NCBI GenBank assembly: GCA_937888925.1
Contig: CALARM010001098.1
Span: forward strand, 1 to 6,412
Source of the DNA: an uncultured Synergistia bacterium
GTDB taxonomy: Bacteria; Eremiobacterota; SpSt-956; JAKJGF01
Length of the DNA stretch: 6,412 nt
Reading direction: 5' to 3'
The position numbers and the translations under genes are program-made. The notes beneath the pieces are model-generated. The model made no database searches, was not told the DNA's origin, and saw only the letters and a list, made by a program, of their open reading frames with translations. The stretch's first letter is position 1; each line of letters opens with the position of its first letter. Positions 1,766 to 6,412 of this stretch are shown here, in pieces.

Positions 1766-1808
1766 GTCTGAACTCGAACAGGTCGGATTAACGGATAGGT
1801 CGGATAAA
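1766..1808. repeat. CGGAT-family intergenic repeat, copy A
   Basis: GGTCGGAT occurs twice here (1781 and 1798). The 15-mer ACGGATAGGTCGGAT at 1791-1805 recurs exactly at 5827-5841 and 5925-5939. The adjoining GTCTGAACTCG (1766-1776) is the reverse complement of bases at about 5913-5923. It is therefore a rearranged copy of the cluster at the right of the window. Confidence 0.65.
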
Positions 1809-1871
1809 GGCAATTTTTCCAACACAGATACAGGCAAACAGAAGATAACTGCAGCAATTACAGGTTAATTA

Positions 1872-1988: not shown

Positions 1989-2365
1989 TAAAATCTCTGG
2001 AAAAACCAGAAGATGCAAAGGATTATCATCAGGAGATGATCTTTCTATATAATAAACTTTACAGGGAGGTGTTAATAATGAAACTGTTAAATCCTTTTGA
2101 AGCCGGATGTGATGAACAGGGACTAAAAGAACTTATACTTGAAGAACCTCTGGGAGGATTATTAATTAAATATAAAGATGAAATTATTAATAAAATAGGT
2201 GAAGACGAGATTATTAATAAACTGGGAGAAGATAAGATTATTAATAAACTGGGAGAAGATAAGATTATTAATAAACTGGGAGAAGATAAGATTGCAAAAG
2301 CTCTTTTAAATAAAATTGGCAAGCAAAAACTTCTGGAATTACTTGATAAATTTGACTCTGAATAG
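1919..2365 (+). CDS. Small hypothetical protein with 9-residue tandem repeats, probably the C-terminal remnant of a larger protein
   Basis: The full open stretch is 148 codons from a GTG at 1919 with no ribosome binding site. A better start is ATG 2078 (M54), with GGAGGT at 2065-2070 and 7-nt spacing, giving a 95-residue product that begins MKLLNPFEAG. Residues 54-86 form a mixed acidic and hydrophobic helix-like segment. Residues 87-125 are four 9-residue units of the form D-[EK]-I-I-N-K-[IL]-G-E plus a partial fifth, followed by an amphipathic tail rich in Lys and Leu. The repeats predict a continuous helical or coiled rod. I recognise no enzyme motif. Upstream codons (EDNVRKLLIKSLEKPEDAK) also look like real coding sequence, which supports descent from a longer gene whose N-terminus is the fragment at 1887. 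Whether the 95-residue product is made is open. Confidence 0.55.
   Translation: MACLFCSGNGESLHHEDNVRKLLIKSLEKPEDAKDYHQEMIFLYNKLYREVLIMKLLNPFEAGCDEQGLKELILEEPLGGLLIKYKDEIINKIGEDEIINKLGEDKIINKLGEDKIINKLGEDKIAKALLNKIGKQKLLELLDKFDSE
2065..2070 (+). promoter_or_regulatory. Internal Shine-Dalgarno site before ATG 2078
   Basis: GGAGGT lies 7 nt before ATG 2078 inside the 148-codon frame. It is the only good ribosome binding site in this gene and favours the short 95-residue form. Confidence 0.5.
2177..2293 (+). repeat. 27-bp in-frame tandem repeat, 4.3 copies
   Basis: Units start at 2177, 2204, 2231 and 2258, with a partial unit at 2285-2293. Units 3 and 4 are identical, unit 2 differs slightly and unit 1 most. 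This suggests recent expansion at the 3' side. Each unit encodes nine residues and preserves frame. Confidence 0.9.
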
Positions 2366-2537
2366 ACTTGACCGGGATTGATAAATGAAAAACCGAAAAA
2401 CCCTCCTGCATCTTTCGAGCTTTTTTCATAAAGCCTACTAAAAACAGAAAGGGCATTTTTCTTCGTCCGGCCACTGGCCGGCCAGGGATAATCGGCCTGG
2501 ACAAAGCATGTTTGCACTGGAGTAAAATCCGTAAACC
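2366..2537. other. Intergenic spacer between convergent genes
   Basis: The left half (2366-2460) is AT-rich with no hairpin-plus-T-run terminator I can support for either strand. The right half (2461-2537) is clearly more GC-rich and continues the unusual composition of the 3' end of the neighbouring FGE gene. It holds the palindromes listed separately. Confidence 0.6.
2467..2500. repeat. Nested GC-rich palindromes downstream of the FGE gene
   Basis: Three overlapping dyads occur: CCGGCC/GGCCGG (2467-2472 and 2476-2481, 3-nt centre); the perfect 12-bp palindrome CTGGCCGGCCAG (2474-2485); and CCAGG/CCTGG (2482-2486 and 2496-2500). No T-run follows on either strand, so a simple terminator is unlikely. 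They start about 38 nt past the stop codon of the minus-strand FGE gene. A hairpin or cruciform in that position is known for some DGR targets (established for the Bordetella phage system). The link here is inference. Confidence 0.5.
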
Positions 2538-3923
2538 TTACTCTTCTGGCAGGTAGCATGTGCTCAACAGGCGAAAGCCCAGGTTGTTGTTGCGGTTGTC
2601 CGGCGTGTTGCCGAACCGTCTGGCAGACCGGCAGTAATCGGGACCGCTGTCCCAACAGCCGCCGCGTATAACCCGGTACGAGCCTGAACCAGGACCAGCA
2701 GGATTACTCAACGGACTCTGAGAATAATAACTATTACTATAACAGTCACTGCACCACTCCCATACATTTCCACTCATATCAAACAAACCCCACGCATTCG
2801 GACTCTTCTGACCCACTGGATGTACCTGACCGCCGGAATTATTACCATACCAGCAATAACTATCATTCATACTATCTCCCCAGTAATATGCTGTACTACT
2901 ACCGGCACGACATGCATACTCCCACTCAGCCTCTGTAGGCAGACGATATGTCTTTCCTGTCCTGCCGCTTAACCACCGGCAATATCCAACCGCATCATCC
3001 CAGCTCACACGCTCTATCGGATAACTTCTATCTGACCAATTACCCTGATGACCGGAATCATACATAGAATACTCACGATTCGTTACCTCATATTTTCCCA
3101 TATAAAAACTGCTCACTGTTACACTGTGAACCGGACTTTCATCACCACCATTATTACTACCCATCTGAAACGTTCCGCCATCTATATACACCATGTCAAA
3201 ATTTACTCCACTACCTGTCTCTGTATAAGACTTTCCTCCCGACACACTCACAGATACCGGAGTCGGAGTCACTGCCGCCTGTTTTGCCAGAACTTCCGCC
3301 GCTGCCTTCTTTCCTATAGCTTCTTTATTATTCGGATCTATTACAAGAACTGCTTCATAAAGAGTTACTGCATTATCATATTCTCCCTTTTCATAGCAAC
3401 CATTCGCCTTCTTCATCAACTCAGAAACCTTGCTGTTATCCACTGCTACTGGAGTAGGAGTCGGCTGGCTGTTCATTGCACTGTCACATTCCTTTATTCG
3501 ATCCTTCGCATCACTATCTGAGGGATTTATTTCCAGAACACGGTTAAAACACTTTTTCGCTTCACCATATTTCTTTAAATACATTAAAGACAGTCCCTTG
3601 TTGTAATAGGCTTTATCATAATCACCTTTCTTGCTTATTGCCTGATTATATACCTCAAGAGATCGTTCCACATAATATGTATTATTTCCGCTCTTTCCCA
3701 TATTATATAAGGCATAACCCTTGTTATTCAATAACTGAGGAACTCCAGGATCTAACTCAAGAGCCTTATTAAAACAATTTAAAGCCTCCTCGTATTTCCC
3801 CTTCTCAAGTAAACTCAATCCCTCTTTATTCCATTCTTTCGCATTCTTTCCACTTACCATTATTGAGGTCAAAAAAGTCACTACTATCATTACTATCAGT
3901 ACTACAGATAATCTCAATCTCAT
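2538..3923 (-). CDS. Exported TPR protein with C-terminal FGE-sulfatase (C-type-lectin fold) domain; candidate DGR target
   Basis: 461 residues from ATG 3923. AGGAG at 3935-3931 is 7 nt upstream, which rules out the TTG two codons earlier (only 1 nt from the site). Residues 1-25 are a signal peptide or membrane anchor (MRLRLS then a hydrophobic run). TPRs occupy about 28-145 and, after a PTPTP linker (154-158), about 166-200; a second TPTP linker (219-222) leads to the FGE-sulfatase domain, about 242-453. Family landmarks include GGTFQMGS, RLPTEAEWEYACRAG, GLFDMSGNVWEWCSD and the terminal NLGFRL. In true formylglycine-generating enzymes two cysteines lie five residues apart after the GG of the C-terminal motif; here these positions are S426 and C431. 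The catalytic pair is broken, so a binding role is more likely than sulfatase activation. The last ~50 codons are GC-rich and resemble a DGR variable region. The next minus-strand gene to the right is a paralogue. Confidence 0.92.
   Translation of the reverse strand: MRLRLSVVLIVMIVVTFLTSIMVSGKNAKEWNKEGLSLLEKGKYEEALNCFNKALELDPGVPQLLNNKGYALYNMGKSGNNTYYVERSLEVYNQAISKKGDYDKAYYNKGLSLMYLKKYGEAKKCFNRVLEINPSDSDAKDRIKECDSAMNSQPTPTPVAVDNSKVSELMKKANGCYEKGEYDNAVTLYEAVLVIDPNNKEAIGKKAAAEVLAKQAAVTPTPVSVSVSGGKSYTETGSGVNFDMVYIDGGTFQMGSNNGGDESPVHSVTVSSFYMGKYEVTNREYSMYDSGHQGNWSDRSYPIERVSWDDAVGYCRWLSGRTGKTYRLPTEAEWEYACRAGSSTAYYWGDSMNDSYCWYGNNSGGQVHPVGQKSPNAWGLFDMSGNVWEWCSDCYSNSYYSQSPLSNPAGPGSGSYRVIRGGCWDSGPDYCRSARRFGNTPDNRNNNLGFRLLSTCYLPEE
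2541..2690 (-). other. Candidate DGR variable region (3' end of the TPR-FGE gene)
   Basis: The segment encodes RVIRGGCWDSGPDYCRSARR followed by FGNTPDNRNNNLGFRL. DGR target proteins with an FGE/C-lectin domain are known to end in a motif of the type RGGSW...CRSA.R....PDNRNNN.GFR. At the positions that vary in that family the codons here are GAC, AGC, GGT, GAT, TAC, TTC, GGC and AAC, all of NNC/NNT form, as expected when AAC/AAT template codons are mutated at adenines. Bases 2541-2700 are about 61% GC (98/160 counted) against 40% in 2701-2760 (24/60). Variable codons span about 2583-2657. No template repeat is present in this window. Confidence 0.6.
2743..2974 (-). repeat. Paralogous direct repeat, copy 1 (FGE core)
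   Basis: This 232-bp block aligns without gaps to 6181-6412 (offset 3438). At the low-coordinate end 48 of 49 bases are identical. The encoded proteins match at about 58 of 75 positions. Similarity collapses below 2743, that is, in the C-terminal part of the proteins. Confidence 0.85.
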
Positions 3924-3930
3924 TGACAAA

Positions 3931-4109: not shown

Positions 4110-5834
4110 ATGAAAAAAATACCCTATGGAATTTCAGATTTTCAACTTATAAAAAAAGAGAATTACTACTATGTTGATAAGACACGGTTTATACAGAACA
4201 TAGAAGCTTCATCACGATATCTATTTTTTATCCGCCCCAGACGTTTCGGTAAATCATTGTGGCTCTCCCTTATGGGAAATTATTATGACATAGCTAAAAA
4301 AGAACTTTTCGAAGATTTATTCAAAGAAACTTATATTTATGATAACCAGACAGATGAAAGAAATTCTTATTTAATTTTAAAATTCAATTTCTCCGAGGTA
4401 AGTTCTGATATTAAAGATGTGGAAAATTCATTCAATAATACTATAAAAATAGGATCTCTAAAATTTATAAGAAAATACAGAGATTATATAAAAGATACCA
4501 AAAAAAAAGAAAAGATAATAGAAAATATTGAAAAAGCTTCGGAAATATTAAAGTACCTTACAGATTTTGTAGAAGGCAATGAAACAATCTACCTCATGAT
4601 AGATGAATATGATAATTTCACCAATACAATCATATCCTCGACAGGTAATGAACAGTATATGGCCATAACTCACGGAGAAGGCTTCTACAGGCATTTCTTC
4701 AATGTAATTAAAGCAGGAACCACAGGAGGCCCCATTTCAAAACTTTTTATTACAGGCGTATCACCTGTTACTATGGATGACGTAACAAGCGGATTTAATA
4801 TTGGAGATAATATTACTTCAGACCCGGCAGTAAATCAAATGGCCGGTTTTACGGAAATAGAAGTTAAAGAAATGCTTTCTCATTATGGAATACCTGAAAG
4901 TGCTATTGAAATGATGAAGGGATGGTATAATAATTATCTCTTTTCAGAGTATGAAAAAACAAGAATGTATAATTCAGACATGACTCTCTATTTTGTTAAA
5001 GAATATCTTAAAACCAGTACACTTCCTAAAAATATGTTAGATTATAATATCAGAACAGATTACAATAAACTCAAATATCTCATCATAACAGACCTGAAGG
5101 GCAAAATAAAGGTAAACGGGAATTTTGAAAAATTAAATATCATACTGGAAGAAGGACAGATAGAAGCCAATATAGTAAACAGTTTCCCTGCTGAAAGAAT
5201 TATTGACCCGGAAAATTTCATTTCTCTTTTATATTATTTCGGACTCCTTACGATAAAAGGCGTAAGCAGAGGAATGACAGAACTTATTGTACCGAATGAA
5301 GTGATAAAACAGTTATATTATGAATATATCAGAGAAGGCTATAGAGATACAGATATATTTAAAATAAACCTGTTTAAACTCGGTAAACTTTTCAGTAATA
5401 TGGCCTATGATGGGAAATGGGAAGAGCTTTTTACATATCTCTCTGATGAAATGAATAAACAGACTTCCCTTCGGGATTATATTGAAGGAGAAAGAGCTAT
5501 TCAGACCTTCCTGAGAACTTACCTGAATGTTTCAAATTATTATATTACAAGAACCGAATATGAACTTAATAAAGGTTACTGTGATATTTTACTCCTTCCA
5601 AATTTACCGAGCTATCCTGATATGAAATATTCCTATTTAATTGAACTCAAATACCTGTCACAGAAGGAATTCAGTCAGACAAACATGGAAGAAAAAATAA
5701 AAAATGCAGAGGAAAAACTTGACAGGTATAAAAATGATGAAGGACTTAAAAAACTACTTGGCTCAACCCAAATAATCAGGCTTATCCTTGTATTCTCAGG
5801 GGTGGAACTCAAATACAGGTCTGACCACGGATAG
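4110..5834 (+). CDS. AAA-ATPase-like protein with C-terminal PD-(D/E)XK nuclease domain
   Basis: 574 residues, a normal length for the AAA-ATPase_like plus PDDEXK_9 architecture (Pfam PF09820 and PF08011). The N-terminal hallmark KIPYGISDFQ...YYYVDKT is present. Walker A reads RPRRFGKS at 42-49 (K48, S49); Walker B is YLMIDEYD at 161-168 (D165, E166). A sensor-like ITGVSPVTMDD lies at 214-224. The nuclease motif is E485...G489-Y-C-D492, then IELK at 511-514 (E512, K514), so the D...ExK triad looks intact. The family is often multi-copy and its role is not settled; a defence or mobile function has been suspected but not shown. The gene is monocistronic, with its own extended -10 promoter. Its final residues RSDHG and stop codon are encoded by the CGGAT repeat at 5819 onward, so the original C-terminus has probably been replaced by a few codons. 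Confidence 0.93.
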   Translation: MKKIPYGISDFQLIKKENYYYVDKTRFIQNIEASSRYLFFIRPRRFGKSLWLSLMGNYYDIAKKELFEDLFKETYIYDNQTDERNSYLILKFNFSEVSSDIKDVENSFNNTIKIGSLKFIRKYRDYIKDTKKKEKIIENIEKASEILKYLTDFVEGNETIYLMIDEYDNFTNTIISSTGNEQYMAITHGEGFYRHFFNVIKAGTTGGPISKLFITGVSPVTMDDVTSGFNIGDNITSDPAVNQMAGFTEIEVKEMLSHYGIPESAIEMMKGWYNNYLFSEYEKTRMYNSDMTLYFVKEYLKTSTLPKNMLDYNIRTDYNKLKYLIITDLKGKIKVNGNFEKLNIILEEGQIEANIVNSFPAERIIDPENFISLLYYFGLLTIKGVSRGMTELIVPNEVIKQLYYEYIREGYRDTDIFKINLFKLGKLFSNMAYDGKWEELFTYLSDEMNKQTSLRDYIEGERAIQTFLRTYLNVSNYYITRTEYELNKGYCDILLLPNLPSYPDMKYSYLIELKYLSQKEFSQTNMEEKIKNAEEKLDRYKNDEGLKKLLGSTQIIRLILVFSGVELKYRSDHG

Positions 5835-5869
5835 GTCGGATTTATCGGACATATCGGATAAAGAAACCA
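5819..5869 (+). repeat. CGGAT-family repeat, direct copy B (overlaps the 3' end of the AAA/nuclease gene)
   Basis: Bases 5823-5869 match 5921-5967 at 44 of 47 positions without gaps. The repeat begins before the stop codon TAG (5832-5834) and supplies the last codons of the gene. Confidence 0.8.
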
Positions 5870-5907
5870 GACTTCGGCAATCATCCGACTCATCCGATAA
5901 ATTCGAC
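5835..5907. repeat. Long imperfect hairpin formed by the inverted centre of the CGGAT cluster
   Basis: 5835-5849 pairs with 5893-5907 (14 of 15 plus one G-U). After a symmetric 4x4 internal loop, 5854-5859 pairs with 5883-5888. The terminal loop is 23 nt. It starts at the base after the stop codon of the AAA/nuclease gene, so it could protect or end that mRNA, but no T-run follows. Confidence 0.6.
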
Positions 5908-5920
5908 GCATCCGAGTTCA

Positions 5921-5967
5921 GACCACGGATAGGTCGGATTTCTCGGATATATCGGATTAAGAAACCA
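5921..5967 (+). repeat. CGGAT-family repeat, direct copy C
   Basis: Second direct copy, 98 bp after copy B, with three substitutions. Together with the inverted middle part the cluster has the form repeat, inverted repeat, repeat. Confidence 0.8.
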
Positions 5968-5996: not shown

Positions 5997-6412
5997 CTAC
6001 TGCGTACAGCAAAGACGAAACCCCAGATTATAGTCTCTGAAAGAGGAACCGGAACTATAGCGAAAAGAGGATCTGCAGTAATCCTGCCCCTTATTCCAGG
6101 CACCTCCGCGTTTGATCCTCTTTGTTCCGGACAGAGGGCCGGAAGGGTCTGTTACACAGGAGGAAGTATAGGGGCCGCTCCAGTCACTGCACCACTCCCA
6201 TACATTTCCGCTCATATCAAACAAACCCAGGCCGTTAGGACTCTTCTCTCCTACACTATGAATAGTGCCTCCTGAATTATCACTGTACCAGCAATAAGTG
6301 TCATTCATAGTATTACCCCAGTAATAATCAGATATAGAACCGGCACGGCACGCATATTCCCACTCTGCTTCTGTCGGGAGGCGATAAATCTTGCCTGTTT
6401 TACCGGTCAACC
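5997..6412 (-). CDS. FGE-sulfatase domain protein, second paralogue (5' end beyond window)
   Basis: 137 complete codons are visible, from within the domain to TAG 5999-5997. The first in-frame TTG (6410) is an internal leucine of the conserved W-L-x-G-x-T-G-K segment, not a start. Landmarks: RLPTEAEWEYACRAGS, NDTYCWY, GLFDMSGNVWEWCSDW, RGGAWNKGQDYCRS, and a terminal NLGFRLCCTQ. About 58 of 75 residues match the first paralogue up to WCSD, after which they diverge. Of the two cysteines needed for formylglycine generation only the second (DYC) remains; the first position is lysine. Codons of the C-terminal segment are mixed (AAT, AAG, TCC, TCT, TAT) and AT-balanced, so this copy does not look like a DGR variable region. 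By analogy with its paralogue the missing N-terminus may hold a signal peptide and TPRs. The role is likely extracytoplasmic binding. Confidence 0.88.
   Translation of the reverse strand, partial: LTGKTGKIYRLPTEAEWEYACRAGSISDYYWGNTMNDTYCWYSDNSGGTIHSVGEKSPNGLGLFDMSGNVWEWCSDWSGPYTSSCVTDPSGPLSGTKRIKRGGAWNKGQDYCRSSFRYSSGSSFRDYNLGFRLCCTQ
6181..6412 (-). repeat. Paralogous direct repeat, copy 2 (FGE core)
   Basis: Partner of 2743-2974. It runs off the window, so the full extent of the duplication is unknown. Confidence 0.85.

What the first reader, a model, noticed from the sequence alone, without database searches (positions are those of the whole stretch)
2541..2690. Candidate DGR variable region at the 3' end of a TPR-FGE gene
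Seen: the last ~50 codons switch abruptly to ~61% GC and encode RGGCWDSGPDYCRSARR...PDNRNNNLGFRL. Codons at the exposed positions are almost all NNC/NNT (GAC, AGC, GGT, GAT, TAC, TTC, GGC, AAC x5). Known: DGR targets with an FGE/C-lectin domain end in RGGSW..., CRSA, PDNRNNN, GFR, with AAC-rich templates mutated at A. Inference: this gene is diversified by a DGR whose template and reverse transcriptase lie outside the window, making it a hypervariable exported receptor.
Basis: partly seen in the sequence, partly recalled or inferred. Interest (0 to 1): 0.85.

Follow-up and report, generated by a model that had tools for sequence, protein, structure and literature searches.

The report
Hypermutation target fused to template RNA
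A bacterial surface-type gene ends in a piece of a known gene-hypermutation system, but its tail carries part of that system's RNA template instead of an ordinary target site, which suggests that the target and its template have merged into one and the hypermutation may have been frozen.

Summary
In detail: the last ~45 codons of the TPR-FGE gene (2538-3929, minus) change abruptly (GC3 0.36 to 0.70) into a DGR-type RGG.W...CRSA.R...PDNRNNNLGFR core. But the tail is more than a variable region (VR). Its 3' half is template-like (5 of 6 expected AAY codons kept; 11 ordinary VRs keep 12 of 57), its 5' half looks diversified at adenines, and behind it lies the structured RNA spacer that normally follows a DGR template repeat (TR): a full-length match to Rfam RT-14 (34.7 bits, below the 48.1 cut-off) and a DNA match to a Prosthecochloris plasmid's TR flank. 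A survey of genomes from four phyla gave 15 RT-14 loci: 11 behind noncoding TRs, 2 directly behind an FGE gene (cyanobacteria), the arrangement seen here, and 2 with neither. Best explanation: recombination between VR and TR, direct repeats that can flank avd and the reverse transcriptase, excised the machinery and left a VR/TR hybrid plus spacer, a frozen target. A gene whose own mRNA is its template is not excluded. The source genome is not held, so reverse transcriptase and separate template could not be sought beyond 6.4 kb. Active hypervariability is not shown.

The parts
2538..3929 (-). TPR-FGE (C-type-lectin-like) protein gene, 463 aa, hydrophobic N-terminus (by eye); its 3' end is the element described
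   Evidence: PF03781 E 1.5e-55, TPR
2571..2684 (-). TR/VR-type core: GSYRVI + 32 codons RGGCW...GFR; GC3 rises within this stretch
2610..2666 (-). 5' part of the core (codons 1-19), VR-like: template adenines mostly replaced (10 of 13 A mismatched against 11 of 40 other bases, versus a consensus of 5 foreign TRs)
2571..2609 (-). 3' part of the core (codons 20-32), TR-like: AAC ACG CCG GAC AAC CGC AAC AAC AAC...; 1 of 12 template A mismatched
2411..2562 (-). template-RNA spacer, full-length match to Rfam RT-14 (RF02921) positions 1-144, 34.7 bits, below the gathering score; contains the stop codon
2507..2562 (-). spacer helices P1/P2 (CAUG..CAUG, UGC..GCA, 10-bp hairpin)
2461..2506 (-). spacer middle hairpin P3
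2400..2454 (-). spacer terminal hairpin P4 followed by a U-run; internal loop UUAGUA / CGAAAG at 2412-2441
2538..2540 (-). stop codon TAA, inside the spacer's P2 hairpin
5997..6412 (-). second FGE gene (cut by the window end), internal control: tail conserved with P0003, no RT-14 or descriptor hit

Best explanation
The gene is a DGR target in which variable region and template have collapsed into one. In several DGRs of this kind the order is target gene (VR) - avd - reverse transcriptase - TR - spacer, all on one strand, so VR and TR are direct repeats that flank the machinery. Recombination between them would excise avd and the reverse transcriptase and leave the target gene ending in a hybrid (VR-derived 5' part, TR-derived 3' part) followed by the template-RNA spacer. 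That is what the window shows. The result is a target frozen in one variant, with its 3' UTR still holding the RNA element that in a working DGR recruits the reverse transcriptase and primes cDNA synthesis. Shown here: the hybrid-looking core, the spacer match, the gene order in four loci, two cyanobacterial genes with the same gene-spacer arrangement. Inferred: the recombination event, the loss of the machinery in this genome, and the frozen state.
For: Spacer identity: blastn of 2440-2700 against plasmids gave one hit, the TR flank of the Prosthecochloris aestuarii pPAES01 DGR; RT-14 full-length match; the unconstrained fold gives the RT-14 architecture (z -2.37, 4 of 200 shuffles as good); a stem / UYRGUA / inner helix / CGAARR / stem descriptor hits the window once, at 2441, and the loci fetched by then 8 times (6 distinct places), each at a DGR TR spacer, including L048/L049 that played no part in making it, and hits shuffles 4 times in 16.9 Mb. 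RT-14 is the DGR spacer: 11 of 15 distinct RT-14 loci lie directly behind a noncoding TR, 8 of those 11 within reach of a DGR reverse transcriptase (contexts). Hybrid core: right part keeps 5 of 6 expected AAY codons while 11 ordinary VRs keep 12 of 57 there and 10 of 53 on the left; window left 0 of 5 (P about 0.002 for the right part; Fisher 0.015 left against right). Gene order VR-(avd)-RT-TR-spacer on one strand in L003, L009, L020, L048. Same end product in L032 and L053, whose genomes gave no close DGR reverse transcriptase and no second copy of the tail.
Against: The source genome is not held, so absence of reverse transcriptase and of another template is not shown. The RT-14 score is below the family's cut-off, and two of the 15 survey loci (L036 33.3 bits, L045 37.5 bits) have no TR, so scores in this range include doubtful ones. 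A terminal-hairpin model built from 7 spacers did not find the window (5.8 bits, sixth of 13 hits with filters off), nor the spacers of L003, L020, L028, L029. The boundary between the parts (codon 19) was chosen after seeing the window, and the TRs compared are foreign. In L029, L041, L043 and L044 the VR seen lies downstream of TR and spacer, an order from which this deletion would not arise. The gap between GFR and the spacer is 8 nt here against 13-25 nt in the RT-14 loci measured (coordinates). L032 and L053 are both cyanobacterial and may share ancestry; by eye their right parts look diversified (2 AAY and none), so they do not repeat the TR-like part. Lack of a close reverse transcriptase is not special to fusions: G319 and G882, with ordinary TR-spacers, gave only 23% and 30% matches.
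Confidence: 0.55

Rival explanations
1. Self-templating target: the gene's own mRNA 3' end (TR-like part plus spacer) is the working template, served by a reverse transcriptase elsewhere in the genome; it may diversify itself or other FGE genes.
For: The spacer architecture looks intact; the A-rich right part is retained; in BPP-1 the spacer recruits the RT-Avd complex and primes cDNA (PMC12875486, introduction passage seen).
Against: No reverse transcriptase in the window; both analogous genomes gave no close DGR reverse transcriptase; a self-templated repeat should lose its adenines (inference).
Confidence: 0.15
2. Ordinary remote DGR target: the tail is a plain VR; template and reverse transcriptase lie elsewhere, and the spacer has no role.
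For: A-directed differences in the left part; relatives P0002, P0043, P0087, P0097, P0103 share 0-2 of 12 residues at template-Asn codons but 14-15 of 20 at the others.
Against: No VR in the fetched loci had a spacer-descriptor hit (the descriptor misses several known spacers); right part unlike each of the 11 VRs compared, which keep at most 3 AAY codons there.
Confidence: 0.14
3. Gene conversion or horizontal transfer put a TR-plus-spacer segment onto an ordinary FGE gene that was never a DGR target; the left part is native FGE sequence.
For: The left peptide (W-D-x-G-x-D-Y-C-R-S-A) resembles the conserved tail of P0003 (4 of 12 template-Asn and 16 of 20 other residues identical); at template-A positions the left part matches the paralogue at 7 of 13 and the template consensus at 3 of 13.
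Against: The left part and the six codons before it are nearer in DNA to the template consensus at non-A bases (29 of 40; 11 of 16) than to the paralogue (22 of 40; 8 of 16), and GC3 is already high there.
Confidence: 0.11
4. Ordinary FGE C-terminus with odd base composition and a chance terminator hairpin.
For: FGE tails with this motif are widespread; RT-14 score below cut-off; R1 model negative.
Against: DNA match to a TR flank, descriptor specificity, spacer directly behind the core.
Confidence: 0.05

Closest known systems
Bordetella phage BPP-1 DGR (mtd / avd / TR / brt)
   Same: A-directed diversification of a C-type-lectin-fold C-terminus; structured spacer 3' of TR (PMC12875486, passage)
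   Different: There the spacer lies between TR and brt; VR is followed by IMH and a hairpin/cruciform (PMC3240598, abstract and passages). Here the coding gene itself is followed by the spacer.
Prosthecochloris aestuarii pPAES01 DGR (FGE targets, avd, RT, TR)
   Same: Only plasmid match of the tail, extending through the TR end and its 3' flank
   Different: There the matching stretch is unannotated, beside avd and RT; the match does not continue into the flanks of its two FGE VRs.
Rfam RT-14 RNA (RF02921)
   Same: Full-length architecture and many conserved nucleotides
   Different: 34.7 bits, below the gathering score; stop codon of a protein gene lies inside; longer inner helix in P4.
Degenerate DGR loci of Thiohalocapsa PB-PSB1 and remnant targets of Treponema denticola
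   Same: Targets left without local reverse transcriptase or TR (PMC10907252 and PMC4891356, passages)
   Different: No VR/TR hybrid with spacer is mentioned in the passages seen.
   Same: FGE gene with VR-like tail ending directly before RT-14, no RT in the ~3 kb locus
   Different: Right parts look diversified rather than template-like (by eye).

Membership tests
DGR target gene | C-type-lectin-fold (FGE) domain with VR-type core at the 3' end | tested here: met
DGR target gene | mismatches to the cognate TR fall on TR adenines | tested here: inconclusive
   no cognate TR available; against a consensus of 5 foreign TRs, left part A 10/13 vs non-A 11/40 mismatched (p 0.0027), right part 1/12 vs 3/24
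DGR target gene | IMH followed by GC-rich hairpin with GRNA loop (BPP-1 type) | tested here: inconclusive
   none in the window, but none behind any of 16 control VRs (one of them doubtful) either
complete DGR | reverse transcriptase and accessory gene (avd) | tested here: inconclusive
   none in the 6412-base window (one 13-aa match at E 0.6); genome not held
complete DGR | separate TR nearly identical to the VR | tested here: inconclusive
   no second copy in the window; rest of genome not searchable
RT-14 RNA (RF02921) | score at or above the gathering score | tested here: not met
   34.7 against 48.1 bits
RT-14 RNA (RF02921) | full-length architecture with P1/P2, P3, P4 and UUAGUA..GAA loop | tested here: met
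   some pairs non-standard in the model alignment
DGR template repeat | noncoding, A-rich at variable codons, followed by spacer | tested here: not met
   spacer present, but the repeat is the in-frame end of a 463-aa gene and only its 3' part is A-rich

The most novel reading that the evidence does not exclude
It would be a route by which target and template form or merge.
Probability: 0.14. Interest if true: 0.85.

Novelty: new variant of a known kind. Interest (0 to 1): 0.55.

Why it matters
It gives a concrete way for a hypermutation system to switch itself off, freezing one variant, with a recognisable scar: target gene, hybrid repeat, template spacer. It also ties the Rfam family RT-14 to the DGR template RNA, a link that none of my literature searches listed, and so makes DGR templates and orphan templates searchable without the reverse transcriptase. 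If the self-templating reading held, it would bear on how template and target separated in the first place.

Tried and rejected
Whole-genome searches of the window's own assembly were not possible. Exact patterns from the tail and from the spacer found nothing in viral contigs; phages gave no match. L030 matched part of the spacer by chance inside an unrelated 490-aa ORF. Rfam at gathering score found no RT-14 in 10 loci that included known TRs, so that threshold is insensitive here; at relaxed threshold RT-14 was not found in L021 (the P. aestuarii TR flank), L024, L028 or L029 either, so those spacers rest on sequence and the hairpin motif, not on RT-14. In one search L032 was not listed, while searches report it at 45 bits. 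P0124, an FGE protein with an all-Asn tail that may read into a spacer, and P0126, a reverse transcriptase ORF reading into a TR, were suggestive, but their DNA could not be obtained, so neither is counted. The GRNA-hairpin test separated nothing. A terminal-hairpin model (R1) proved too narrow. MAFFT misaligned the 5' half of the spacers, so no covariation claim is made for it. The P4 pair count (12 of 15 pairs with changes on both sides, 93% of cells paired) was made on 7 spacers without the window; 3 of the 10 aligned (L037, L039, L044) were dropped before it. In the VR/TR comparison VRs of L020, L038 and L044 were left out because their lengths or shortened TRs did not fit the 32-codon frame; L048/L049 were not included, and loci with a VR-like tail but no TR in hand could not be.

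Literature: searches. None listed a paper whose title or abstract start describes a VR/TR hybrid with spacer or RT-14 as a DGR spacer. The likely source of RT-14 (Weinberg et al. 2017, seen only as a reference; that it defines RT-14 is recalled) is not held. Papers cited were seen as passages only.

Full report
What is there. The minus-strand gene 2538-3929 encodes TPR repeats and a C-terminal FGE domain. Up to about codon 417 its GC3 is near 0.36; then it rises to about 0.70 and the protein ends GSYRVIRGGCWDSGPDYCRSARRFGNTPDNRNNNLGFRLLSTCYLPEE. The GC-rich tract passes the stop codon and ends near 2450.

First clue. Blastn of 2440-2700 against 72,556 plasmid records gave one match, in Prosthecochloris aestuarii pPAES01. 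It lies just behind a gene annotated RNA-directed DNA polymerase, which follows avd, with FGE genes on both sides, i.e. in a DGR template repeat. The match covers the end of the repeat and continues about 75 nt past the GFR codons; the matches to the two FGE VRs there stop at the VR end. The same tail also resembles TRs beside reverse transcriptases in L003, L009, L028 and L029.

The flank is an RNA element. Rfam at relaxed threshold matches 2411-2562 to RT-14 (RF02921), all 144 positions, 34.7 bits, gathering score 48.1, E 0.0029 for the 341-nt stretch and 0.054 for the whole window. Folding the strand alone gives the same helices. Surveys with RF02921 covered 146 and 386 genomes of the phylum of G005 (cyanobacteria by its record title), 195 of the order of G345, 246 of the phylum of G001 (Planctomycetota), 247 of that of G006 (Desulfobacter) and 299 of that of G010 (Thiothrix). 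The E limits were 0.1, 0.05, 0.01 in the others; the cyanobacterial samples overlap, only a few candidates per genome were scored, and one search does not list hits seen, so counts are lower bounds. They gave 15 distinct loci. In 11 the element lies directly behind a noncoding TR: L031, L035, L037, L038, L039, L040, L041, L042, L043, L044, L052; 8 of these 11 (not L031, L042, L044) hold a DGR-type reverse transcriptase in the fetched ~3 kb, and the TRs of L037 and L039, which are not of the FGE type, were judged by eye. In 2, L032 and L053, the element lies directly behind an FGE gene with a VR-like end. L036 and L045 have no TR; L045 looks like a terminator, L036 scores well with my hairpin model and stays open. 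RT-14 is therefore, in most of the loci seen, the spacer of a DGR template RNA. In BPP-1 the corresponding spacer folds, recruits the RT-Avd complex and primes cDNA synthesis (PMC12875486, introduction passage). Seven such terminal hairpins, without the window, show changes on both sides in 12 of 15 pairs.

Independent check of the spacer. A descriptor of the terminal hairpin (outer stem of at least 7 pairs, UYRGUA, inner helix, CGAARR) hits the window once on both strands, at 2441, and the loci fetched by then 8 times: L003, L020 and L021 (the same place), L028, L037, L039, L048 and L049 (the same sequence). All lie in TR spacers. L048 and L049 were fetched for another reason and turned out to hold RT-TR-spacer. 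Shuffles gave 4 hits in 16.9 Mb. The descriptor was written with the window in view and misses several known spacers. Against: model R1, built from 7 spacers without the window, gives the window only 5.8 bits and also misses L003, L020, L028 and L029; L003, L020 and L028 share a longer inner helix with the window. The gap between the GFR codons and the RT-14 start is 8 nt in the window and 13-25 nt in the RT-14 loci measured (coordinates).

TR or VR? In 11 VR/TR pairs from 7 loci the TR's AAY codons are kept in 10 of 53 cases in the left part (codons 1-19 of 32) and 12 of 57 in the right. At positions that are AAY in at least 5 of 9 TRs the window keeps 0 of 5 on the left and 5 of 6 on the right (Fisher 0.015; chance of at least 5 of 6 at the VR rate 0.002). 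Against a consensus of 5 TRs the left part is mismatched at 10 of 13 A and 11 of 40 other bases (p 0.0027), the right part at 1 of 12 and 3 of 24. So the left part behaves like a VR and the right part like a TR. The boundary was set after seeing the sequence and the TRs are foreign, so these are indications, not proof.

Relatives. P0002, P0043, P0087, P0097 and P0103 agree with the window at 0-2 of 12 template-Asn codons and 14-15 of 20 others; P0003 at 4 of 12 and 16 of 20. The second FGE gene of the window agrees with P0003 at 11 of 12 and 16 of 20, so it does not look diversified. P0003 is named by its source as from Candidatus Eremiobacterota; the host of the window is otherwise unknown.

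Mechanism. In L003, L009, L020 and L048 a target VR, (avd), RT, TR and spacer follow each other on one strand, so VR and TR are direct repeats around the machinery; in L031 and L042 the VR gene lies 310 and 365 bp before the TR with no reverse transcriptase between. In L029, L041, L043 and L044 the VR seen lies after the spacer instead. Recombination between VR and a downstream TR removes what lies between and leaves gene - hybrid repeat - spacer, which is the window. It predicts the VR-like left, the TR-like right, and no reverse transcriptase at this place; the first two were seen, the third only within the window. L032's genome shows only distant reverse transcriptases (25-30% identity), L053's none, and neither has a second copy of the tail, while the same query found a 65% match in G950 and, besides itself, a 72% match in G1440. 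G319 and G882, with ordinary TR-spacers, also had only 23% and 30% matches, so this is not specific to fusions.

Verdict. A real DGR-derived tail, but an unusual one. Searches listed no paper describing such a hybrid; degenerate and remnant DGR loci are described (PMC10907252, PMC4891356, passages).

Noticed in passing
window 2175-2309 (+): 27-nt tandem repeat coding IINKLGEDK-type units in ORF 1919-2365, which has no Pfam or NCBIfam match.
   Followed up: no
window 1766-1809 and 5817-5967: Dispersed CGGATAGGTCGGATT-type repeats, with a 42-nt inverted pair at 5818-5924, perhaps a small mobile or REP-like element.
   Followed up: no
window 4110-5834 (+): AAA-ATPase_like / PDDEXK_9 protein, 574 aa, open throughout.
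   Followed up: no
L036:1552-1617: RT-14 hit without TR or reverse transcriptase in the locus; terminal hairpin scores 34.5 bits with model R1. Possibly an orphan spacer.
   Followed up: partly
L048:3083-6535 and L049: IMG/VR contigs with a DGR: FGE target, reverse transcriptase, TR and spacer with the UUGGUA/CGAAGA loop.
   Followed up: partly
L044:1411-1482 and L020:7930-8030: Shortened template repeats that lack several codons present in the related VRs, next to spacers.
   Followed up: no
L037 and L039: Two near-identical avd-TR-spacer-RT cassettes in one genome (G731), each with a DNA-methylase-like ORF (by eye) and a tRNA nearby, with TRs unlike the FGE type.
   Followed up: no
P0126: 428-aa database protein that looks like a DGR reverse transcriptase reading on into a TR with an all-Asn FGE tail; precomputed as RVT_1 + FGE.
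   Followed up: partly
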